The notes beneath the pieces were generated by a model. The model did not search any database, was not told where the DNA came from, and saw nothing but the letters and a program-made list of their open reading frames with translations. From Pyronema omphalodes (Eukaryota > Ascomycota > Pezizomycetes > Pezizales > Pyronemataceae): 64,000 bases of DNA. The stretch is from contig JAJJXM010000013.1 of assembly GCA_024516155.1 (NCBI GenBank), positions 372,001 to 436,000 of the forward strand, written 5' to 3'. The translations under genes and the position numbers were made by a program. Positions within the stretch are counted from its first letter, which is position 1, and every line of letters starts with the position of its first letter. Below, one piece after another: positions 38,314 through 63,493 of this stretch.

Positions 38314-38855
38314 GTATGGATGGTGGGGAACTCTGATTCCAGTTCGCGGGGATGGGGTAGTTCGTTTTCCAGATTTTCCGTGGAGACGGGAGGTTCCTTT
38401 CCTGTCTCGGGCTCGTCCTTGCAGGGTGGGATTGTTGTCTTGGTCTCCATCGGGGGTTTCCATCCCCTGATGCCGCATCTCTAGTCGTGTCCGTTCTTGT
38501 TGACCAGGAACTTGCATACGTTGCAGAGTCTCTTTCCTTTTTGCCATGCTCGGCAGGCTTTTTGCGGGTCTATCCTTGGATGTCGGATCACCCATTCTAA
38601 CTCGGGACTATGTAGCTGCCCGCAGCTACATGAACTTGTTAGGTGGGCCGCAATTGCTTGCACCTCAGCTGGGAAGTGATTGTTGTTTAGTTTCGATTGG
38701 AGGTGAATGGAGCAGGAATCGTTGTTACAGAACGGCCACTGTAGTTCTGCGTGCGGGATCATGGGGTGAGGGGATTTCTTTTCTGCCGGAGGAGTAGGGG
38801 TTCGGTACCAGCCCAAAGAGGACGGAGGGTCCTCAAAATTCGTCCTGTCATCCAT
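38314..38855 (-). pseudogene. Element F ORF3 (Cys/His-rich part, truncated)
   Basis: ATG 38855-38853 overlaps the pol stop as TAATG. The Cys/His-rich domain shows CNNDSCSIH, SCSCGQLH and ACRAWQKGKRLCNVCKF and is close to 55105-55480 of element C. A TAG after NKNGHD (38481) replaces the CGG of element C, and the next codon is AGA against GGA. The same frame continues (RCGIRGWKPP...) to 38314, where the family III LTR removes the rest. No database family is recognised. Cys spacing suggests metal binding, which is an inference. Confidence 0.
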
Positions 38856-43251: not shown

Positions 43252-43719
43252 ATTACCTCCTGAATTTCTGTATCGGTCATCGTCTTCTTCTGAATTTCGG
43301 TAGAGTGGGAGGTACCCAGGGTGAGTCTTATCAATTATGTCCCGTTCTCGTGAAAAACGTCCTGGGGAAGGAGGACTCGGGTTCGGTTTTGCCGGTGCTT
43401 CATCTCCCCTTCCCAGGGCGAGTCTCCTGACTCTCGGGACAATATGTCGGGTTTACCTGCGAACTTGCCTGGTCGATAAGTGATGGTGAAGTCCTAGTTC
43501 GTCAATTGTTCCACCCATCGGGCCTGTCGGAGGTTGAAGTCCCTCTTCGTTTGCCAATACTCCAAGTTTTTCTGATCTGACAGTATCCGGATACGGTCGA
43601 TTTGCAGTATGTAGACCATTTGTCTAAGGCTTCCACTATTGCCAGGAGCTCTTTATCGTGGATGTCATAATTTAGCTCCGTTTCTTTCATTTTTCCTGAA
43701 AAAAAGGCAAGGGGGTGCA
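43252..43719 (-). pseudogene. Element F pol fragment: C-terminal RNase H and connection
   Basis: Reads [34 protein letters not shown], then the QARWVEQL and ITYRPGKFAGKPDILSR region typical of the RNase H end. It is interrupted by small indels and an in-frame TAG. It joins 63494 upstream and 40269 downstream. Confidence 0.
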
Positions 43720-44505
43720 TGTCACAACGCTCCCATGACGTGCTCCTGGCCTCCGCCGTCACCACCGCAGAGCTATGGGTGGTTACTATCACCCTAGCAA
43801 CCTGCTACGCAATAATGAAGTGATAGGGATAGGATTAGGGCAAGGGGCTGGGCCCCTTGCCAGGGATTTTCATATTTTAGGAATCATTTATTATTTGAGA
43901 TTATGTTAGGTATCACGGCGGTTAGGCAAATGTTGGAATCTTTTACTTATTTATTATGCATTTGGAATTATGGCGGTTAGCAAGGTAGTTATCTTTTTTG
44001 GTATGTATTGTTTCTTTAGTATTTGGAATTACGGCGGTTAGCAAGTTATCTTTTTGGTATGTACGGTTTCTTTATTATTTGGAATTACGGCGGTTAGCAA
44101 GGTAGTTATCTTGTGGTATGTATTGTTCCCCTGTTCTATTATTTGGAATTACGGCGGTTGGCAGTGGTGGGGGATGTTGGTCATGTATTTAGTTATCACG
44201 GCGGTGAGCATTGGAGCATTCTCCGCAGGCGGAGAATGCTGAGTCACGGGTCATGAAGGAACAAGTATAAGAGGAGGAAATTTGTAAGTAGGTTCTTTCT
44301 TCACGCAATCAAGTTTCTATTTACTATAATACTATCTATAAAAGTTCCCTTGTGACATTTCCATCTCTTCTAAACTGACCTGTGATTTGCCAGCAAACCC
44401 TCGCCCATTCCCAACCTCTAAGCCTTCCCCAAGCCTCCGCCGCCCCGCACTTCGCCGAAACCCCGCACTTCCTGTCGTCAGTAACCGTGGATACGGATTC
44501 TGATA
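43720..44505 (+). repeat. Element C 5' LTR with internal ~60-bp tandem repeats
   Basis: 786 bp, TGTCACAACGCTCCC to GGATTCTGATA. Four units starting TTTGGAATTA-CGGCGGTT begin at 43961, 44022, 44078 and 44142. A hairpin GCATTCTCCGC...GCGGAGAATGC lies near 44215-44240. Confidence 0.
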
Positions 44506-53686: not shown

Positions 53687-55105
53687 GTAATCCGCAAACT
53701 TCGGGGGGGAATGACCCGAGACAATAAGGTCCCCTTGGGGTTATGTGAAGAAAGGGACGTGTTACTCCTATACAAGGGACTGATATGGGTCCCTAATGAT
53801 GACGATCTGCGGTTACAGATACTACGACAACACCATGATTCCCAAGCCGCCGGGCATCCGGGGAGGGCAAGGACCTTGGAGTTGGTCAGCCAAGATTTTT
53901 ACTGGCCACAACAACGACAGTATGTGACTCGATATGTCGACAACTGTGATACCTGTAAACATATCAAACCCATTAAGCACGCCCCCTTCGGTCTCTAACA
54001 ACCATTACAGATTCCAGAAACACCATGGGAATCCATCTCCATGGATTTTATCACGGGTCTTGCGGAAGATGGGGGAATGAACACGATATGGGTAATCGTG
54101 GATCGCTTGATGAAGATGGCCCACTTCGTAGCATGTAAGGACACTATGGGGCCTAGGGCACTCGTGGACGCGTCCCTCACACATGTGGTACGGGCCCACG
54201 GACTCCGCAGCAGCATCATCTCGGACCGGGGGTCCTCATTCACCTCTCAGTTCTGGAAGAGGGTTATGGAGGCAATGGGGACCTCGAGGAACCTGAGCAC
54301 GGCGTTTCACCCAGAGTCCGACGGACAGACAGAGAGGGTCAATGCGATCCTCGAACAGTACCTCAGGGCGTACTGTAACTACCAACAAAACAATTGGAAC
54401 CAACTCCTTCCTATGGCGTAGTTCTGCTACAACAACTCCCGCTCAGGAATGACCAAGGTGTGCCCCTTCTTCGCGAATTACGGATATCATCCCCGTTTCA
54501 CCCGACCGCTGGGTGAAGTCACGGAAGGAAATCCCGAGGTCTCCACATATGTTGGTGCCCTCAACCGACTTCACGAGGATCTAAGGGCAGAGGTCCACTA
54601 TGCCCAGACTGCTCATGCAGAACAGGCGACCCGGCATCGACACCCGGATCCGGTCCTTCGAGTGGGAGATCGGGTCCGGCTGAAGAGGAAGAATGTGAAA
54701 ACCACCCGACCTTCCAACAAGCTGGACTACAAGCTATTGGGCCCCTATGCCATCTGATCTAGGGTATGGTCGCGAGCTTATAAGCTGGACCTCCCCCCAA
54801 ACGCGAAATTCCATCTAGTATTTCACATCTCCCTGCTAGAACCGTCTCAACCTACTTCCACCACCATCCCAGGCCATATTCAGCCCCCTCCGGTACCGAT
54901 TATCCTCGACGACGAGGAAGAGTGGGAAGTTGAAGACATAGTGGATTCTCGACGCCATCGGGGACAGATCGAATATCGAGTCAAGTGGACTGGTTTCCAC
55001 GACCCCGATACGACCTGGTACCCCGCGGGCAATTTTCAAAACTCCCCCGACGCCAGCACCCAATTCCACCGCAGGTACCCTAATAAACCTGCCCCACAGC
55101 TGTAA
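53687..55105 (+). pseudogene. Element C integrase and chromodomain
   Basis: H2C2 finger (HHDSQAAGHPGRA, CDTCKHIK), core motifs SMDFITGLAEDGG, ISDRGSSF and ESDGQTERVN, a GPY-like region and a C-terminal chromodomain (EEWEVEDIVDSRRHRGQIEY) ending in PNKPAPQL and TAA. Nonsense codons lie at 53996 and 54418 and just after GPYAI near 54757. The final A of the TAA is the first base of the ORF3 ATG. Confidence 0.
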
Positions 55106-55180
55106 TGGACGACAGTACGAATTCTGAGGACCCTCCGTCCTCTTTGGTCTGGTACCGAACCCCTACTCCTCCGGCAGAAA

Positions 55181-55770
55181 AGAAATCCCCTCACCCCATG
55201 ATCCCGCACGCAGAACTACACTGGCCGTTCTGTAACAACGATTCCTGCTCCATTCACCTCCAATCGAAACTAAACAACAATCACTGCCCAGCTGAGGTGC
55301 AAGCAATTGCGGCCCACCTAACAAGTTCATGTAGCTGCGGGCAGCTACATAATCCCGAGTTAGAATGGGTGATCCGACATCGAAGGATAGACCCGCAAAA
55401 AGCCTGCCGAGCATGGCAAAAAGGAAAGAGACTCTGCAAGGTATGCAAGTTCCTGGTCAACAAGAACGGACACAAAGAAATCCCCTCACCCCACGAACCC
55501 GCACGGAGAGCTACATTGGCTGTTCTGTAACAACGATTCCTGCTCCATTCACCTCCAATCCAAACTAAACAACAATCACTTCCCAGCGGTGGCGCAAGCA
55601 ATTGCGGCACGCATAAAAAAATCATGTAGATGCGGGCAGCTACATGATCCCAAGTTAGAATGGGTGATCCGACATCGAAGGATGGACCCGCAAAAAGCCT
55701 GCAAAGCATGGCAAAAAGGAAAGAGACTCTGCAAAGTGTGCAGATTCTTGGTCAACAAAGACGGACACGA
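55181..55770 (+). repeat. 295-bp tandem duplication inside ORF3
   Basis: AGAAATCCCCTCACCCCA begins at 55181 and again at 55476. Because 295 is not a multiple of three, the second unit is out of frame with the first. The corresponding region of element F is single-copy. Confidence 0.
55329..55350. repeat. Palindromic hairpin in ORF3, unit 1
   Basis: ATGTAGCTGC, GG, GCAGCTACAT: 10-bp perfect arms. The duplicate at 55621-55648 has 13-bp arms with one mismatch, and element F has it at 38610-38631. Confidence 0.
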
Positions 55771-56320
55771 CCGGGGATGCGGCATCAGGGGATGGAGACC
55801 CCCGAGGGAGACCAAGACAACGATCCCACCCTGCAAGGACGAGCCCGAGGCAGGAAAGGCACCTCCCGTCTCCACGGAAAATCGGGAAAACGAACCACCC
55901 CGTCCCCGCGAACTGAAATCAGAGGACCCCGCCATCCATACAATGTGACACCAGCTCCCAGCACGAGAAGGTGGCAATCACCTGTCCTTCTATCAGACAG
56001 CGGATCCGGAGCAGCATCTCCCCACCGTCGACTCCCGACCAACCAACGACCTGACATCCGCCCCTTGTTCGGATCCCCCGGAGCCTCCCGCCTCGGGGCA
56101 CCAACAACATCAAATACCCCCGTTCTCCTTAGGGCACCAACAAGAAGCAATAACGGCGCCCCCCTTAGGACACCAACAAGAGCAAATCCCGCCTTACGTC
56201 CTCGAGGACATCACCCATGACGTCGTACGTCGCCGACGTCGGGGAAGGCGGTATCGGGGACGCTCCCCCATCCGGAGGCCTGCCTTGGGGACTGCCTACG
56301 GCCTCGCCGGAGTCTCGGCC

Positions 56321-56336
56321 TGGAGGGGGGGGCTTA
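56321..56336 (+). promoter_or_regulatory. Polypurine tract of family IV
   Basis: TGGAGGGGGGGGCTTA directly before the 3' LTR. It is also coding sequence for ORF3 (W-R-G-G-L). Confidence 0.
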
Positions 56337-57044
56337 TGTCACAACGCTCCCGTGACATGCTCCTGGCCTCCGCCGTCACCACCGCAGGGCTATGGGTGGT
56401 TACCATCACCCTCGCAACCTGCTACGCAATAATGAAGTGATAGGGATAGGGTTAGGGCAAGGGGCTGGGTCCCTGATTATTTTAGGTATCACGGCGGTTA
56501 GGCGAATCTTGGAATCTGTCACTTATTTATTATGTATTTGGACTTACGGCGGTTAGCAAGGTAGTTATCGTTTTTGGTATGTATTGTTTCTTTAGTATTT
56601 GGAATTACGGCGGTGAGCAAGTTATCTTTTTGGTATGTACTGTTCCTTTATTATTTGGAATTACGGCGGTTAGCAAGGTAGTTATCTTGTGGTATGTATT
56701 ATTCCCCTGTTCTATTATTTGGAATTACGGCGGTTGGCAGTGGTGGGGGATGTTGGTCATGTATTTAGTTATCACGGCGGTTAGCATTGGAGCATTCTCC
56801 GCAGCCGGAGAATGCTGAGTCACGGGTCATGAAGGAAGAAGTATAAGAGGAGGAAATTTGTACGTAGTTTATTTCTTCACGCAATCAAGTTTCTGTTTAC
56901 TATAATTCTATCTACAAAAGTTCCCTTGTTCCATTTCCATCTCTTCTAAACTCACCTGTGATTTCCCAGCAAACCCTCGTCCATTCCCAACCTCCAAGCC
57001 TTCCCCAAGCTGCCGCCGCCCCGCCCTTCGCCGAAACCCCGCAC
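56337..57044 (+). repeat. Element C 3' LTR, first part (interrupted)
   Basis: Matches 43720-44460 with the same tandem units. It is cut at CGCAC, the target site of the family I element, and resumes at 63457-63493 with TGCCTGTCGTCAGTAACC up to TCTCATA. Confidence 0.
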
Positions 57045-57572
57045 TGTCACGGCACACGGCTGACGAGCCGTTGTGTTGCGTCATCATGTTGTCGTGGTTG
57101 TTGATTGACAACGTGCCGTTGTCTTGCCGTGTTGTGTTGCCGTTGTGTTGTTGTGTTGTTGTGTGTGCCGTGCCATGTGACTGAGAGAATGATTGATGAT
57201 GGATAACGTACCACGAGCTGGAGAGCTGTGGCGTCGCAGTTGAATCGATGGAGAACGGAAGCTCATGTAGCGATGATTGTATGACGGCCCAGCAAGAGTG
57301 CTGGCCGCCCCTTTGTACATAAGGAGGCTTGCCTCCCCGTTGTCGAGATTCTCCATCGAACGTCTTGTGTCTTCTCCTGACTCCTAATATAAGAATTCCT
57401 CTCCTAAGTCCTACGTCACTCTTGTCCTTGTCCCTGTCCCTGTTTAGTGTGCCGTCCGTCTGACGAGCACTTCGGTCCTTGTCCTGCCGTTCCCCGTTCC
57501 GGAACCTGCCTAGCCCCTCTTTCCGGTAGTGTTCAGTGTGTCCCTTGAACGTCCGTTCTCGTGTCCCTGACA
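57045..57572 (+). repeat. Element E 5' LTR
   Basis: 528 bp. Features: ACGGCT-GACG-AGCCGT inverted repeat near the left end, a GTT/GTG-rich stretch, a TATA-like TAATATAAG at 57385-57393, and the end TGTCCCTGACA. Confidence 0.
57385..57393 (+). promoter_or_regulatory. TATA-like box in element E LTR
   Basis: TAATATAAG is the only clear A/T-rich core-promoter-like motif in the LTR and recurs at the matching place in the composite element's LTRs. The start site itself cannot be read. Confidence 0.
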
Positions 57573-57584
57573 TTACGTTCGATC
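57573..57584 (+). promoter_or_regulatory. Candidate primer-binding site (possible self-priming)
   Basis: TTACGTTCGATC immediately follows the 5' LTR in elements E, H, G and the composite. It does not start with TGG, so it does not fit a mature tRNA 3' end. ACGTTCGAT (57575-57583) is the exact complement of ATCGAACGT in the LTR (57355-57363), which would suit the self-priming known for Tf1/sushi chromoviruses. That LTR segment lies upstream of the TATA-like box, which argues against it. Confidence 0.
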
Positions 57585-57607
57585 GATTAACTATTCAACC
57601 GACACGC

Positions 57608-57850
57608 ATGAACCGCACCGGTTCTGCCTGGACCCACGCACTAAAGCAAGCTCTTGAAACGCACACCCTATACGAAACCTTTGGGATCCCCGACAGATTC
57701 GCTGGCGCAGTGCGAAGGACCGTCCGACGAGCACAAAATAACTGCTACCTTGTGGTCCGCTGGCAACTCCAGGACTACACCTATCAGGAGCACATCCGCC
57801 GCACCATCAGACTCAAGCCAATCCTCAGAGCCCGCCAGGATGCATATTAA
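57608..57850 (+). CDS. Element E ORF1 (80 aa, unknown function)
   Basis: First ORF of the transcript, 35 nt after the LTR. It opens MNRTGSAWTHALKQALETHT, with FAGAVRRTVRR and YLVVRWQLQDY blocks and a basic C-terminus. No domain is recognised. The stop TAA is inside ATGCATATTAA (57840-57850), which also contains the gag ATG, in the +1 frame. Three copies in this window keep the frame, length and overlap. It could be a Gag-N-terminal module expressed separately or a translational control ORF. Confidence 0.
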   Translation: MNRTGSAWTHALKQALETHTLYETFGIPDRFAGAVRRTVRRAQNNCYLVVRWQLQDYTYQEHIRRTIRLKPILRARQDAY

Positions 57851-59187
57851 ACTTATTGACGAAGGCCACTGGCAACAAATTGTGAACGCCGCCGCCATGA
57901 CCCAGTTCCCCGACGGCCATGAACCGCTCATCTTTACAAAACAACTCGCACAATCCATTTTAGACGCTCAGGACCACCCCACGGGTTACCTCCTAAACGA
58001 CCTCGCGGAAACCCCCGGCTCTCGTAACAGCACTCGGGTATCCAGCCCTGTCGCCTCCCGCGCTCCGGAAGCTCCCACCCCTGCTCCCATTCCCCCTGTC
58101 GTGATCCAGACTGGCTCCGTCCAGGTCTACCCGAACGGCCCAGAACCAGCACCGCGAGCCGCCGCACCCCCTACCACAGCCGCAGCCGCAGCCCCCGCCC
58201 CCGCGATAATCGCACCAATTCCTAGACCCCCCCCCCCGTGACCCCGAGATCCTCCTAACCCCGGAGGAGCAAGCCGATACAAACGAAATCCACTACTACG
58301 AGAAAGAACTCACCCGCCAGCGTGAGCTAATCAATGCGCTACTCGCCTCCCCCGGCATCCGCGTAACTGGAGACAAAATCTCGGATCCGCCAACCTTCGA
58401 CGGGTCCAACAGGGAGGACCTCCGCCGCTTTGTCTCCTTGCTTCGTATCAAGTTAGTGAGCGATGAACTACGTTTCCCGACCCCCCATAAACGGATTTCT
58501 TACGCCATGGGCCGCCTCCGCGGACGCGCCCTGGACCAAATTCTTCCTTACATCAAGGAAAACGGCAACCGCTGGGCTCTCAACGACGTCGAGGACGTCA
58601 TTAAAGTTTTACAACGTACCTTCGGAGACCCGGACGAGCGCGCAACGGCTCGTTTCAAACTACAGAATCTCCGACAGAACAACCGCGAATTTTCGGACTA
58701 CTACGCAGAGTTCTCCCGCCTAGTCGCAGAGTTAGGCTGGGACGAAGCCGCCACCATGGATGCCCTGCGTAACGGCCTGTCCCTTGAGCTACACGAGAAG
58801 TTGGTTGGTGCCCCGCCCACCACCACGATGCACGAATTCGTCGAGCAGTGTCAAAAATTGGACTCCCAATTAAGGGCACTTGAAAACCTCCGCAAGCTGC
58901 GTACCAACCGCGGCCAAGTTAAGACCACTACCACCGCCACCCCCACCACCAGTCGCCCCACCCCCGCTACCCAAGCCACCACCGCCTCCTCCAGCAAGCA
59001 AACCCCGGCCCAAGGACCCCGTCAGAAACTGTCGGCACAGGAGCGCGCGACCCGCCTATCAGAAGGACGTTGCCTCTACTGCGGTGGCCTCGGCCACATG
59101 GCTGCGTCGTGCCCCGCCAAGACGAATGTTAAAGTGGCGAGCGTGGAATTAGTGGATGCTGAAGAAGAAGTGTCGGGAAAAGAATAA
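57840..59187 (+). CDS. Element E Gag (one frame break at a C11 run)
   Basis: From ATG 57840: MHIKLIDEGHWQQIVNAAAM, then a Pro/Ala-rich linker up to a run of 11 C (58227-58237). With 11 C the frame stops at 58239; with 10, as in the composite copy, it continues RDPEILLTPEEQAD. The capsid region PPTFDGSNREDLRRFVSLLR and EFSDYYAEFSRLVAELGWDE follows, then a Thr/Ser-rich linker and CCHC knuckle CLYCGGLGHMAASC (59071-59112). It ends VSGKE and TAA 59185-59187. About 450 residues if the run is corrected. The missing or extra C may be an assembly error. Confidence 0.
59175..59181 (+). promoter_or_regulatory. Candidate -1 ribosomal frameshift site, element E gag to pol
   Basis: The heptamer G GGA AAA is in the zero frame, one codon before the gag stop. 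After a 6-nt spacer an ACCAGC (59188-59193) can pair with GCTGGT (59214-59219), enclosing a small GGC-TCT-GCC hairpin. The -1 frame is open without a break from here into pol. Confidence 0.
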
Positions 59188-62100
59188 ACCAGCTGCAAGA
59201 AGATGGCTCTGCCGCTGGTGGGAATACTATTATTGCTGATACATTGCTATTATCGGGCACAAGTTTTACTGGAAAGTTAGAATGCAAACACCTTGTCCTC
59301 TCCTGTTCCTTGTTTTCCAATAACCGCTCCGTGAAAACAGTAGCGCTCGTTGACTGCGGCGCCACTGGTATCGCCTTTGTTGACCGCAATTTCGCCCGCC
59401 ATCACAAACTCCCCCTAACCCCCCTATCCACCGCCCGAACGGTCGAAGTTATCGACGGCCGCCCCATATCCTCAGGAAAGATAACACACCTCGCCCAAGT
59501 AGAGTGTACCATCAACGGTCACTCGGAAACCCTTCCTATGTTTGTCACCAAGCTGGGTCACTACCCGGTGGTGTTGGGTATCCCCTGGTTGAAGAAACAC
59601 GATGTAACAATAAGCTTCAGTTCCAACACTGTAAGCTTCGACTCCGATTACTGCCTAAGGAACTGCACCCCGTTGCCTGTAAGCACAACCGGTGTCGAGG
59701 TCCTGGACTCGAGGCCCCCTCCCGCTGTCCACGAGCCCGACACAAACCCCATGCCGGAGTTAGAAGACTCGGTCCCCGACCCCCCGGAAGAACCCCCAAT
59801 AGAGATCTCAAGTCTAACCATCTCCGACTTCAAAGAAATGGTACAAGACGAAAGCCTGACAGTGTTCTCGCTATCGTTGGACGAGATCACCGTCGCCCTA
59901 CAAGACAAGCCCCCCCTCACGGATGACGAACTGAAAAACATGATCCCCGAAGAGTATCATGACTACCTCGATTTATTTAAAGAGGTCAACGCGAAGGAAC
60001 TCCCCCCGCACCGACCCTACGACCACAAGATCCCACTGAAAGAGGGATTCGTCCCCCCCTTTGGCCCGCTATACTCGCTGTCACGAAACGAGTTGCAGAC
60101 GCTGAAAACGTGGCTCGATGAGAATTTGGAGAAAGGATTTATACAACGCTCCCAATCACCAGCCGCCTCGCCGATATTATTCGTGAAAAAATCAGACGGA
60201 TCCCTACGCCTGTGTGTCGACTACCGAAGACTGAATGAAGGTACCGAGAAGAACCGGTACCCGCTGCCATTGATACAGGAAACAATGATGAATCTTTCCA
60301 AAGCTCAATACTTTACGACCCTTGATGTCCGCAGCGCTTATAATCTTATCAGAATGGCAGAGGGCGAAGAATGGAAGACGGCCTTCCGCACACGGTACGG
60401 CCTGTTTGAATCGAAAGTGATGCCTTTTGGGCTCACCAACGCGCCTGCCGATTTCCAGGCATTTATAAATGATGTCCTGAGACCATACCTAGACCAGTTT
60501 TGTACGGCATACTTGGACGATATCCTCGTATTCTCCGAAACAAAGCCCGATCACACCGCACACGTCCGAAAGATCTTGGAACGACTCAAACAAGAAAAAC
60601 TGCACTTGAAGCCAGAGAAGTGTAAGTTTGCTAAGGCAGAAGTACAGTACCTGGGCTACAACATCGGCCGCGACGGCGCGCGCATGATGGATTCCAAAGT
60701 AGCCACAGTGAGAGATTGGAAGGAACCAACCAATTTGAAACAGGTCCAAGAGTTCCTGGGCTTCGCGAATTTCTACCGAAGATTTATCAAAGACTACTCA
60801 AAAGTGGTCTCCCCGCTTACAGCTCTGACCAAAAAGAAAGATGGTAAAGCAATCCCCTTTGTCTGGGGTAAAGATCAGCAGAGCGCCTTCGACCGACTGA
60901 AGGACGCATTTACATCAGCACCCATCCTCAAGCACTTCGACTACGAGAAACCGATTGTAGTAGAAACAGACGCATCTGACTATGTGTCCGCTGGAGTTTT
61001 ATCACAATACGACGACGACAACGTGTTACACCCCGTCGCATTTTATTCCAAGAAGCATTCCCCGGCAGAATGCAACTACGAAATCTACGACAAGGAACTA
61101 CTGGCGATAGTTCGTTGTTTCGAGGAATGGCGTCCCCACTTAGAGGGCTCCGCCTTCCCTATAAAAGTATTGACGGATCACAAGAATCTTGAATACTTCA
61201 TGACGACCAAGCTGCTGAATAGACGACAAGCACGCTGGTCCGAGTTCCTGTCTCGGTTTAACTTTGTGATCACCTATCGACCGGGAACGTTGGGAGGAAA
61301 ACCGGACGCCCTGACAAGAAGAGCCGCCGACCTCCCGGAAGAAGGAGACGAACGCATACTGGCGAACCAGCAAGCTGTTCTGAAGCCACAGAACTTTCAG
61401 TTATGCATGACCCCACCAATGAAACTCGCACCTTCCGAAGTAGACCTCCTGTTCACAGAGGGCTACAAGACAGATTCATTCCCCAACCGAGTGTTGGGAA
61501 TGCTGGAAGATGGCACACAAATCTGTAAGGACATATCGCTCGCCGATTGCTCCGTGTTGGAAAACAGATTGTACTACCGAGATTGCCTCTATGTCCCCGC
61601 GCTAGATAAACTACGCTTGAAACTACTGCAAGATCACCACGACCCCCCCACCATGGGACACCCGGGCCGTGCGAAGACTTTCGAACTCCTCGCCAGGAAT
61701 TACTACTGGCCCTCGATGAGAAAAGATGTGGACCAATTCGTCCGAAATTGCCACACCTGTAAAAGAACAAAGGCTACCCGCCACGCACCCTATGGAACCC
61801 TGAAGCCCCTACCGGTTCCGCACCACCCTTGGCAGAATATATCGGTGGATTTTGTTACTGGACTACCGACATCAGAAGGCTTCGACGCAATATGTGCGAT
61901 CGTTTGCCGACTAACGAAACAGCGGCACTTAGTGCCCTGTCATTCCACGATAGACGCAGAAGGCTTCGCGCAACTCTTCCTGGAAAACGTGTTCAAACTA
62001 CACGGCCTGCCAGACACAGTAGTGTCCGACCGCGGTCCGCAATTTGTGGCCCATTTCTGGAAACACTTGGCGAATTGCATGGGTATCGAAATTGCCACGA

Positions 62101-62912
62101 GTACGGCCTTTCACCCCCAAACCGACGGCCAAACAGAGAGAATTAACGCGGTTACGGAGCAATATCTCCGCGCGTACGTCTGTTATTTACAAGACGATTG
62201 GAAGAAATTTCTACCAATGGCAGAATTTGCTGCAAATAACCAAGTATCGGATACAACGTCGCTGTCTCCGTTCTACGCTATATATGGTCGACACCCCAAG
62301 TGCTCTTTCGAACTGGAAACCAGGACCGACAATCCTGAGGAAGTGAAAGCGAACGAGGTAGCGGAAAGGATGTCACACATCCATGACGTCTTACGTTCGG
62401 AAATGAAATACGCCCAAGCCCGCCACATAGAAGCCGCCGACAATTCCCGACTCCCCGCGCCGGTCTTCAAACCAGGAGACCTGGTATGGCTGGACGCCCG
62501 TAACCTAAGAACCCGCCGCCCCTCAAAGAAACTAGAAAATAAACACCTAGGCCCCTTCACCGTGTTACGGCCTATTGGATCTCACGCCTATGAATTGGAT
62601 ATACCGGAGACCATGAAACACCACAGGACCTTCCCCGTGTCCCTACTAAACCCAGCCCCCTCGGACCCCCTCCCTGGCCAGATTATTCCACCGCCCCTAC
62701 CGGTAGTAGTAGACGGCGAAGAAGAATGGTTCGTGGATGAAATTCTGGATAGCCGTTGGTCAAGAGGAAACCTGCAGTACCTCGTCAAGTGGACCGGCCA
62801 TGACTCCCCAACCTGGGAACCGGAAACGAACCTATCCGAAACTGAGGCCGCCGAGAGATTTCACCAGTTATACCCAGACAAACCTTCTCCTCTCGTAGGA
62901 ACTCGAGCCTAA
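59181..62912 (+). CDS. Element E Pol polyprotein: protease-RT-RNase H-integrase-chromodomain
   Basis: The frame is open from the frameshift heptamer to TAA 62910-62912. There is no ATG near its start, so translation as a Gag-Pol fusion is expected. Counting from 59244: protease DCGATG at residue 37; [14 protein letters not shown] and YLDD at 423-426; RNase H DASDYVSAGV with Asp 576; integrase H2C2 finger from about 798 (GHPGRAKT, CHTC); integrase catalytic Asp 869, Asp 929 and Glu 965, giving the D,D35E spacing; GPF module near 1110; chromodomain about 1159-1215 ([20 protein letters not shown]). All catalytic residues I can check are present. The chromodomain would direct integration to marked histones, as known for chromoviruses. 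Confidence 0.
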   Translation, partial: RINQLQEDGSAAGGNTIIADTLLLSGTSFTGKLECKHLVLSCSLFSNNRSVKTVALVDCGATGIAFVDRNFARHHKLPLTPLSTARTVEVIDGRPISSGKITHLAQVECTINGHSETLPMFVTKLGHYPVVLGIPWLKKHDVTISFSSNTVSFDSDYCLRNCTPLPVSTTGVEVLDSRPPPAVHEPDTNPMPELEDSVPDPPEEPPIEISSLTISDFKEMVQDESLTVFSLSLDEITVALQDKPPLTDDELKNMIPEEYHDYLDLFKEVNAKELPPHRPYDHKIPLKEGFVPPFGPLYSLSRNELQTLKTWLDENLEKGFIQRSQSPAASPILFVKKSDGSLRLCVDYRRLNEGTEKNRYPLPLIQETMMNLSKAQYFTTLDVRSAYNLIRMAEGEEWKTAFRTRYGLFESKVMPFGLTNAPADFQAFINDVLRPYLDQFCTAYLDDILVFSETKPDHTAHVRKILERLKQEKLHLKPEKCKFAKAEVQYLGYNIGRDGARMMDSKVATVRDWKEPTNLKQVQEFLGFANFYRRFIKDYSKVVSPLTALTKKKDGKAIPFVWGKDQQSAFDRLKDAFTSAPILKHFDYEKPIVVETDASDYVSAGVLSQYDDDNVLHPVAFYSKKHSPAECNYEIYDKELLAIVRCFEEWRPHLEGSAFPIKVLTDHKNLEYFMTTKLLNRRQARWSEFLSRFNFVITYRPGTLGGKPDALTRRAADLPEEGDERILANQQAVLKPQNFQLCMTPPMKLAPSEVDLLFTEGYKTDSFPNRVLGMLEDGTQICKDISLADCSVLENRLYYRDCLYVPALDKLRLKLLQDHHDPPTMGHPGRAKTFELLARNYYWPSMRKDVDQFVRNCHTCKRTKATRHAPYGTLKPLPVPHHPWQNISVDFVTGLPTSEGFDAICAIVCRLTKQRHLVPCHSTIDAEGFAQLFLENVFKLHGLPDTVVSDRGPQFVAHFWKHLANCMGIEIATSTAFHPQTDGQTERINAVTEQYLRAYVCYLQDDWKKFLPMAEFAANNQVSDTTSLSPFYAIYGRHPKCSFELETRTDNPEEVKANEVAERMSHIHDVLRSEMKYAQARHIEAADNSRLPAPVFKPGDLVWLDARNLRTRRPSKKLENKHLGPFTVLRPIGSHAYELDIPETMKHHRTFPVSLLNPAPSDPLPGQIIPPPLPVVVDGEEEWFVDEILDSRWSRGNLQYLVKWTGHDSPTWEPETNLSETEAAERFHQLYPDKPSPLVGTRA

Positions 62913-62923
62913 CGGGGGGGTAC

Positions 62924-63451
62924 TGTCACGGCACACGGCTGACGAGCCGTTGTGTTGCGTCATCATGTTGTCGTGGTTGTTGATTGACAACGTGCCGTTG
63001 TCTTGCCGTGTTGTGTTGCCGTTGTGTTGTTGTGTTGTTGTGTGTGCCGTGCCATGTGACTGAGAGAATGATTGATGATGGATAACGTACCACGAGCTGG
63101 AGAGCTGTGGCGTCGCAGTTGAATCGATGGAGAACGGAAGCTCATGTAGCGATGATTGTATGACGGCCCAGCAAGAGTGCTGGCCGCCCCTTTGTACATA
63201 AGGAGGCTTGCCTCCCCGTTGTCGAGATTCTCCATCGAACGTCTTGTGTCTTCTCCTGACTCCTAATATAAGAATTCCTCTCCTAAGTCCTACGTCACTC
63301 TTGTCCTTGTCCCTGTCCCTGTTTAGTGTGCCGTCCGTCTGACGAGCACTTCGGTCCTTGTCCTGCCGTTCCCCGTTCCGGAACCTGCCTAGCCCCTCTT
63401 TCCGGTAGTGTTCAGTGTGTCCCTTGAACGTCCGTTCTCGTGTCCCTGACA
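62924..63451 (+). repeat. Element E 3' LTR
   Basis: 528 bp, the same sequence as the 5' LTR as far as I can compare. It is preceded by a G-run (CGGGGGGGTAC) that serves as polypurine tract. Confidence 0.
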
Positions 63452-63493
63452 CGCACTGCCTGTCGTCAGTAACCGTGGATACGGATTCTCATA
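63452..63493 (+). repeat. Element C 3' LTR, last part
   Basis: Begins with the duplicated CGCAC and finishes the LTR. GTGCA, the element C target duplication, follows at 63494. Confidence 0.

What the first reader, a model, noticed from the sequence alone, without database searches (positions are those of the whole stretch)
55105..56440. Undescribed third ORF after pol in family IV: Cys/His domain, GHQQ linker, Arg block and tail-anchor helix
Both family IV copies carry an ORF in the position of a retroviral env. It has conserved Cys/His spacing (C-x4-C-x2-H, C-x-C-x3-H, C-x9-C-x2-C), three GHQQ repeats, an RRRRRGRRYRGR block and a 20-residue hydrophobic helix at the end. The helix is encoded inside the 3' LTR and its frame is kept in the 5' LTR copy too. 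Fungal Ty3/gypsy elements normally end with pol. I recognise no homologue. The Cys/His part is shared by two copies on opposite strands; the C-terminal part is seen in one copy only.
Basis: partly seen in the sequence, partly recalled or inferred. Interest (0 to 1): 0.87.

Follow-up and report, generated by a model that had tools for sequence, protein, structure and literature searches.

The report
Conserved extra gene in fungal retrotransposons
A family of fungal jumping genes carries a third, apparently undescribed protein gene after pol; it is kept by natural selection, looks like a zinc-binding protein anchored to a membrane by its tail, and its last part is written inside the element's own terminal repeat.

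Summary
The ORF3 is real, but the window copy is a broken example. At 55105-56440 it is not one frame: a 295-bp tandem duplication shifts the frame and a TGA follows. In the same 60.8-Mb genome, 22 of 38 other copies fetched keep one 355-codon frame. A sister family's ORF3 has no stop in 32 of 38 near-full-length matches. Shared (inherited) variants show purifying selection at least as strong as in pol; private variants are near neutral. Relatives down to 31% identity occur in Pyronema domesticum and in JGI records. Conserved: a Cys/His domain, an Asn-Leu-Ser motif and a hydrophobic C-terminal helix; GHQQ repeats and the Arg block are not. The polypurine tract lies inside ORF3, and the helix is encoded in the LTR. 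ORF3 starts at TAATG, overlapping the pol stop. No domain, solved-structure or fold match passed threshold. Best reading: a tail-anchored, zinc-binding accessory protein, made by stop-restart translation, that tethers the element's Gag or RNA to a membrane. The function is inferred, not shown; env-like in position only.

The parts
43720..44505 (+). 5' LTR of the family IV element, with the in-frame tail-helix reading frame at its 5' end; 5-bp target duplication GTGCA just before it (43715-43719)
   Evidence: LTR start TGTCACAACG and end GATTCTGATA located; GTGCA on both sides of the element
54602..55105 (+). 3' end of pol (integrase C-terminus and chromodomain), stop TAA at 55103-55105; this stretch also holds a stop of its own further upstream
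   Evidence: translation; Pfam Chromo and other pol domains on a genomic copy of the same family
55103..55107 (+). TAATG overlap of the pol stop and the ORF3 start
   Evidence: kept in 36 of 38 other copies
55105..56440 (+). ORF3 region: broken in this copy by a 295-bp tandem duplication and a TGA at 55946
55179..55768 (+). tandem duplication of the Cys/His-coding part: unit 1 55179-55473, unit 2 55474-55768; unit 1 is 98.3% like the minus-strand copy, unit 2 is nearer the main genomic family (91.9-92.5% to four copies)
56322..56336 (+). polypurine tract GGAGGGGGGGGCTTA, inside the ORF3 coding frame (codes for WRGGL)
   Evidence: same place in genomic copies
56337..57046 (+). 3' LTR, first part; its first 104 bases code for the ORF3 tail including the hydrophobic helix. 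Interrupted at about 57047 by another LTR element and resumes at about 63452-63493
38314..38855 (-). second family IV copy, N-terminal part of ORF3; open for 124 codons, then TAG; sequence departs into another element at about 38313

Best explanation
ORF3 is a genuine third gene of a group of Ty3/gypsy chromoviruses in this fungus and its relatives. Its protein has an N-terminal domain of conserved Cys and His residues that most likely binds zinc, a linker modelled as mostly disordered, and one C-terminal hydrophobic helix followed by only 8-9 residues, so it should insert into a membrane by its tail with the Cys/His domain in the cytosol. It is probably translated from the full-length RNA by ribosomes that stop at the end of pol and restart at the adjacent AUG. 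Its most likely job is as an accessory assembly or trafficking factor: the cytosolic domain binds Gag particles or element RNA, and the tail holds them at an intracellular membrane such as the ER or nuclear envelope, aiding particle assembly or nuclear access. Shown: the gene, its selection, its conserved parts, and its overlap with the polypurine tract and LTR. Inferred: zinc binding, tail anchoring, restart translation. Proposed only: the tethering role.
For: 22 of 38 fetched copies have the full 355-codon frame; the other two frames of those copies have at least 10 and 4 stops. Shared variants: 50 synonymous and 36 replacement, against 25.6 and 56.9 expected (relative N/S 0.32; first 135 codons 0.12); private variants 0.84 and 1.18. 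In the same 20 copies ORF3 0.34, pol 0.51 for shared variants; wrong frames of ORF3 1.16 and 2.57. C43, C48, C76, C78, C101, C111, C114, H123 and C127 are invariant among 8 aligned proteins, the other seven 33-74% identical to the first. The tail helix is modelled with block-mean pLDDT 92-97 over most of its length in two proteins from two groups. Its 19-residue hydropathy is 1.58-2.33 in 11 proteins, and its hydrophobic moment is 0.02-0.07 in 7, as for a membrane helix rather than an amphipathic one. TAATG is kept in 36 of 38 copies; in the sister family ORF3 starts five bases after the pol stop in 3 of the 4 loci printed, and four in the other. UAAUG and short stop-start spacings are known arrangements for coupled restart (passages of PMC5972666).
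Against: No direct evidence of protein, zinc, membrane or RNA binding. No UGGGA motif within 100 bases upstream in any of 38 copies (at least 50 bases were available in each), and no unusual RNA fold at the junction (z -0.24, 1.66, -0.30, 1.64). Within the family the LTR-encoded tail has too few shared variants to demonstrate selection (3 synonymous, 5 replacement). The hydropathy of the tail is moderate: 1 to 66 of 2000 shuffles reach it, depending on the protein, and the next-best window elsewhere reaches 1.48 in P0027. Part of the conservation of WRGGLMSQ may be conservation of the polypurine tract and LTR end rather than of protein. Most of the protein is modelled with low confidence (mean pLDDT 58.5 and 56.7). 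Another chromovirus in the same window has no ORF3, so the function is dispensable in a related element.
Confidence: 0.5

Rival explanations
1. ORF3 is an env-like protein that lets the element leave the cell and enter another, as retroviral Env does.
For: Position between pol and the 3' LTR in sense, plus a C-terminal membrane-type helix; such ORFs in plants and insects are called env-like (PMC7264820, part 1 of 3 read).
Against: Best hydropathy of windows starting in the first 40 residues is 0.18 or lower in 11 of 11 proteins, so no signal peptide is apparent; no Env family matched; the conserved part is a compact Cys/His domain; only 8-9 residues follow the best window of the helix.
Confidence: 0.1
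2. ORF3 counters a host defence (RNA silencing or another surveillance system) from a membrane-bound position. It would then be an accessory factor comparable to retroviral Nef, whose gene also spans the polypurine tract and U3 (recalled).
For: Accessory gene kept in some families and absent from another in the same window; zinc-type plus Arg-rich make-up in family IV; variable linker but conserved domain.
Against: No match to a known suppressor family; within the family the middle part too is under some constraint (N/S 0.55 for shared variants). No formal test for positive selection was run.
Confidence: 0.2
3. ORF3 is captured host sequence or a by-product frame without function.
For: No characterised homologue; the window copy is broken.
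Against: Frame-specific purifying selection; open in two element families whose Cys/His domains are 52% identical; relatives at 31-89% identity.
Confidence: 0.03
4. The conserved C-terminus is only the polypurine tract and LTR end read by chance in an open frame; the real protein is a soluble zinc protein.
For: The C-terminal coding part coincides with cis-acting DNA; selection on the tail is not demonstrable within the family.
Against: The last 45 residues are 55.6% identical between the two families in this genome, with hydrophobicity kept well beyond the LTR edge; all 8 proteins aligned end within one residue of each other in the alignment.
Confidence: 0.12

Closest known systems
Ty3/gypsy chromoviruses (Ty3 Gag-Pol; chromodomain elements of fungi)
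   Same: Gag with Ty3-type capsid and CCHC knuckle, pol with RT, RNase H, integrase and chromodomain, LTRs and 5-bp target duplications
   Different: An extra ORF of about 312-355 codons between pol and the LTR, running through the polypurine tract into U3
Env-like additional ORFs of plant LTR elements (sense ORFs between pol and 3' LTR; PMC7264820)
   Same: Sense orientation, position after pol, a transmembrane-type segment, unknown function
   Different: Fungal host, no apparent signal peptide, conserved Cys/His domain, C-terminus encoded in the LTR; no direct sequence comparison with those proteins was made, but none came up
Antisense additional ORF of fungal Boty (cited in PMC7264820, from Zhao et al. 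2011, not read)
   Different: Boty's ORF is antisense; this one is sense and adjoins pol
Coupled stop-restart translation at UAAUG: influenza B segment 7, SART1 retrotransposon (PMC5972666, passages)
   Same: UAAUG overlap of the upstream stop and the downstream start
   Different: No UGGGA motif upstream and no notable fold found here; activity not tested
Pfam WCCH motif PF03716
   Same: W-x2-C-x4-C-x2-H at residues 40-51 lies in a match to profile positions 1-17 of 25, E 0.0033
   Different: 17.5 bits, below Pfam's cut-off of 22.4; the rest of the protein is outside it

Membership tests
Ty3/gypsy chromovirus | RT, RNase H, integrase and chromodomain in this order | tested here: met
   Pfam on one genomic copy of the family: RVT_1, RT_RNaseH, Integrase_H2C2, Chromo above cut-off; rve at 25.1 bits, below its 32.6 cut-off; Ty3 polyprotein 7q5b best PDB match, E 8e-142
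Ty3/gypsy chromovirus | LTRs flanked by short target duplications | tested here: met
   both LTRs found in 8 of 11 copies examined; 5-bp duplication in 7 of the 8, read by eye; window copy GTGCA
retroviral or env-like gene | sense ORF between pol and the 3' LTR with a membrane-type segment | tested here: met
retroviral or env-like gene | N-terminal signal peptide | tested here: not met
   no hydrophobic 19-residue window starting in the first 40 residues of 11 proteins (best 0.18); no dedicated predictor was run
retroviral or env-like gene | spliced subgenomic mRNA, surface display | not testable with these tools
   needs RNA and cell data
Pfam WCCH motif PF03716 | score above the curated cut-off | tested here: not met
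   17.5 against 22.4 bits; 4 of 21 relatives hit at E up to 1, best 0.01
coupled termination-reinitiation at UAAUG | overlapping or adjacent stop and start | tested here: met
   TAATG in 36 of 38 copies; spacer of five bases in 3 of 4 sister-family loci printed and four in the other
coupled termination-reinitiation at UAAUG | upstream UGGGA (TURBS motif 1) or a notable structure | tested here: not met
   UGGGA in 0 of 38; four fold z-scores between -0.30 and 1.66, from two copies
tail-anchored membrane protein | single hydrophobic helix close to the C-terminus, no other | tested here: met
   11 of 11 proteins have their best window 8-9 residues from the end; next-best windows elsewhere reach 0.11-1.48; modelled helices in two proteins
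tail-anchored membrane protein | post-translational membrane insertion | not testable with these tools
   needs experiment

The most novel reading that the evidence does not exclude
A group of fungal chromoviruses has evolved a dedicated membrane-tethering accessory protein with no known relatives of known function. Its gene is fused into the element's replication signals: the start overlaps the pol stop, the polypurine tract is inside the coding frame, and the membrane anchor is encoded in U3. The protein may give the element a membrane-associated, virus-like stage that could spread between hyphae.
Probability: 0.15. Interest if true: 0.85.

Novelty: new variant of a known kind. Interest (0 to 1): 0.62.

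Why it matters
In a survey of fungal gypsy elements most full-length ones had one or two ORFs (PMC2864245, passage), so a selected third gene with its own protein family is a new lead on what such elements need besides Gag and Pol. It makes a concrete question testable: do some fungal LTR elements use membranes in assembly or spread? It also gives a clear case where the LTR is coding, so that new insertions could add a ready-made membrane tail to other reading frames, which database proteins hint at (P0076, P0077, P0082 and, less clearly, P0084).

Tried and rejected
Pfam, PHROGs and PDB sequence searches with single proteins and alignments gave only sub-threshold or no hits. Besides WCCH, one search listed weak hits of single members of 21 to Lcl_C (E 0.0081), PRIMA1 (0.02), ERO1 (0.042), CLPTM1 (0.12) and CTU2 (0.46), which I took as chance; one search gave two designed helical proteins at E 0.2. 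Sub-threshold Ribosomal_L32p hits (3 of 21 members, best E 0.061), and the name 'ribosomal protein L32' that a source gave to P0025, P0059 and P0063, rejected as a zinc-ribbon resemblance. Foldseek with two low-confidence models: nothing at E below 5.4. RNA structure at the stop-start junction: nothing. The idea that ORF3 is confined to one lineage was rejected. The idea that the tandem duplication belongs to the gene was rejected: the 37 copies fetched full-length align over ORF3 without it, and the 38th (L046) is truncated at its start. Literature: the rows listed show no report of this gene; these lists are short tops of sometimes very long results. Additional ORFs 'with unknown function' in LTR elements of fungi are mentioned in a figure legend of PMC2864245 (passages) without detail, so an earlier sighting cannot be excluded. 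Papers seen: PMC7264820 part 1 of 3; passages of PMC2864245, PMC3248453, PMC5972666; others in search listings only.

Full report
What is at 55105-56440. The window is part of contig C35 of an unnamed 60.8-Mb, 232-contig genome. Its pol ends in a chromodomain and a TAA at 55103-55105; the ATG of ORF3 overlaps it (TAATG). The window copy is an insertion with target duplication GTGCA on both sides, but other LTR elements have landed in it, including one inside its 3' LTR. Its ORF3 is broken: the frame from 55105 ends at 55530, a 295-bp stretch is present twice (55179-55473 and 55474-55768, 89.8% identical), and a TGA lies at 55946 in the downstream frame. The two units differ in origin: unit 1 is 98.3% identical to the minus-strand copy and 89.2-89.5% to four main-family copies; unit 2 is 91.9-92.5% identical to those four and 89.5% to the minus-strand copy. 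The duplication therefore looks like a misaligned recombination between two different elements.

Other copies. A DNA search of the genome scored the best 40 of 301 candidates. I fetched 38 of the 39 that are not the window; one short match was left out. 22 of 38 have one uninterrupted frame of 355 codons with an ATG start, and 36 of 38 keep TAATG. The exceptions are one copy with ATA in place of ATG and one copy cut at its start. The 37 full-length copies align over ORF3 without the duplication. In the 22 open copies, the other two forward frames hold at least 10 and 4 stops.

LTR and polypurine tract. Both LTRs were found in 8 of 11 copies examined; their identity runs from 90.0% to 99.87%, so some insertions are recent. 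The LTR begins TGTCACAACG. The ORF3 region runs 104 bases into it in all 8, and the polypurine tract directly before it is inside the ORF3 frame. It codes for WRGGL in 6 of the 8; one has WWGGL and one an extra G. The whole hydrophobic helix is therefore coded in U3. The same frame in the 5' LTR follows from LTR copying and is not separate evidence.

Selection. I aligned 43 copies (37 of the 38, leaving out the cut one, plus 6 more); 39 are distinct. Variants shared by at least two copies mostly arose while lineages were still moving; variants private to one copy mostly arose after insertion (assumption of the test). Shared: 50 synonymous, 36 replacement, 0 stops, against 25.6, 56.9 and 3.6 expected for the same base changes placed at random (relative N/S 0.32, 0 of 1000 placements as extreme). 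In the first 135 codons: 28 to 7 (0.12). Shared by at least four copies: 0.38 (P 0.003). Private: 83, 180 and 5 stops (0.84, P 0.070); first 135 codons 1.18; middle part 0.73 (P 0.032), so not fully neutral there. The middle part gave 0.55 for shared variants (P 0.039). The LTR-encoded tail had 3 and 5 shared variants (0.73, P 0.42), too few to tell. Controls on the same 20 copies (19 distinct for pol, 18 for ORF3): last 500 codons of pol 0.51 shared and 0.99 private; ORF3 0.34 and 0.79; the two wrong frames of ORF3 1.16 and 2.57 shared. Limits: shared variants may include later duplications, and the sample is the best-matching part of a larger family.

Relatives. Protein searches listed 14, then 21, then 80 proteins (the 80 include earlier ones and several weak or partial hits). 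One has a named host, Pyronema domesticum (P0006, 59% identical over 82%). P0023-P0027 form a distant group, 33-41% identical to the family IV protein in the alignment. P0026, from ENA, is by eye nearly the same as a second family in this genome. Searching this genome with P0023 (130 of 464 candidates scored, 198 matches, not all listed) gave 38 matches running from residue 10-11 to 302-303 at 43-46% identity, of which 32 have no stop inside (counted by hand). In the four sister-family loci printed, pol ends in another frame and ORF3 starts five bases after its stop (four in one locus) in the context ACCATGG. A polypurine tract again lies in the coding frame, before TGTCACGAACC; that this is the LTR edge is inferred by likeness, since no LTR pair was compared there. 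Pol tails of the two families are 73% identical, the Cys/His domains 52%, and the last 45 residues 56%. A third family in the same window stops at pol: its tract and LTR follow the pol stop directly. Most simply, ORF3 was present before the two families split and is absent from a related one.

Anatomy of the protein. Among 8 aligned proteins the invariant residues include W40, C43, C48, C76, C78, C101, C111, C114, H123, C127, the Asn-Leu-Ser at 203-205, and in the tail S323, MLL 329-331, A338, W341, T346 and Y351. In the 22 open copies each of 11 Cys/His positions, H51 and H82 included, is kept in 21 or 22, but H51 and H82 are not in every distant relative. In all 11 proteins tested the best 19-residue hydropathy window (1.58-2.33) sits 8-9 residues from the end; 1 to 66 of 2000 shuffles reach the same value; the next-best window elsewhere is 0.11-1.48; the N-terminus has none (best 0.18). 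The hydrophobic moment is 0.02-0.07 in the 7 tested. AlphaFold2 models of P0003 and P0026 are poor overall (mean pLDDT 58.5 and 56.7) but give a confident terminal helix and a moderate-confidence Cys/His domain of helices and a beta hairpin. Foldseek found nothing of note and a PDB profile search nothing. Pfam WCCH is hit below its cut-off (17.5 against 22.4 bits); that this motif is listed for retrotransposons and geminiviruses is recalled.

How it probably works. UAAUG overlaps and short stop-start spacings are known settings for coupled restart, as in influenza B and the SART1 retrotransposon (passages of PMC5972666). That suits both families. However, the UGGGA motif is absent in 38 of 38 copies and no structure stands out, so this step is inference. 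A low-yield product from the full-length RNA with a cytosolic zinc domain and a tail anchor fits an accessory factor that tethers Gag or RNA to a membrane. This is proposed, not shown. Env-like exit lacks an apparent signal peptide. A counter-defence role is open. That Nef also spans the polypurine tract and U3 is recalled, and is a likeness of layout only.

Known or new. Sense ORFs after pol are known in plants and insects, and an antisense one in fungal Boty (PMC7264820, part 1). [quoted passage not shown] I found no report of this protein in the rows listed; three more searches failed. I file it as a new variant of a known kind: a chromovirus with a new, selected accessory gene.

Noticed in passing
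window 55179-55768: The tandem duplication in this copy joins units of two different element lineages (unit 1 98.3% to the minus-strand copy; unit 2 91.9-92.5% to four main-family copies), suggesting misaligned recombination or template switching between two elements.
   Followed up: partly
proteins P0076, P0077, P0082, P0084: Database proteins in which the LTR-encoded hydrophobic tail follows unrelated N-terminal sequence, in P0082 a gag-like domain (PF16297); they look like LTR insertions that add a membrane tail to another frame, or gene-model artefacts. P0084 is the least clear.
   Followed up: partly
window 57047-63451 (approximate): Another LTR element sits inside the 3' LTR of the family IV copy; its pol stop is followed directly by a polypurine tract and its LTR, with no ORF3.
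   Followed up: partly
P0025, P0059, P0063: A source names these ORF3 relatives 'ribosomal protein L32', probably from the zinc-ribbon-like Cys spacing; this looks like a wrong name.
   Followed up: partly
window 56530-56740 and 43960-44160: The LTRs contain a short internal repeat of roughly 60 bases (period read from self-matches) around TTTGGAATTACGGCGG.
   Followed up: no
window 38313: The minus-strand copy breaks off into a different sequence starting TGTCACAC, apparently another LTR element inserted into it.
   Followed up: no
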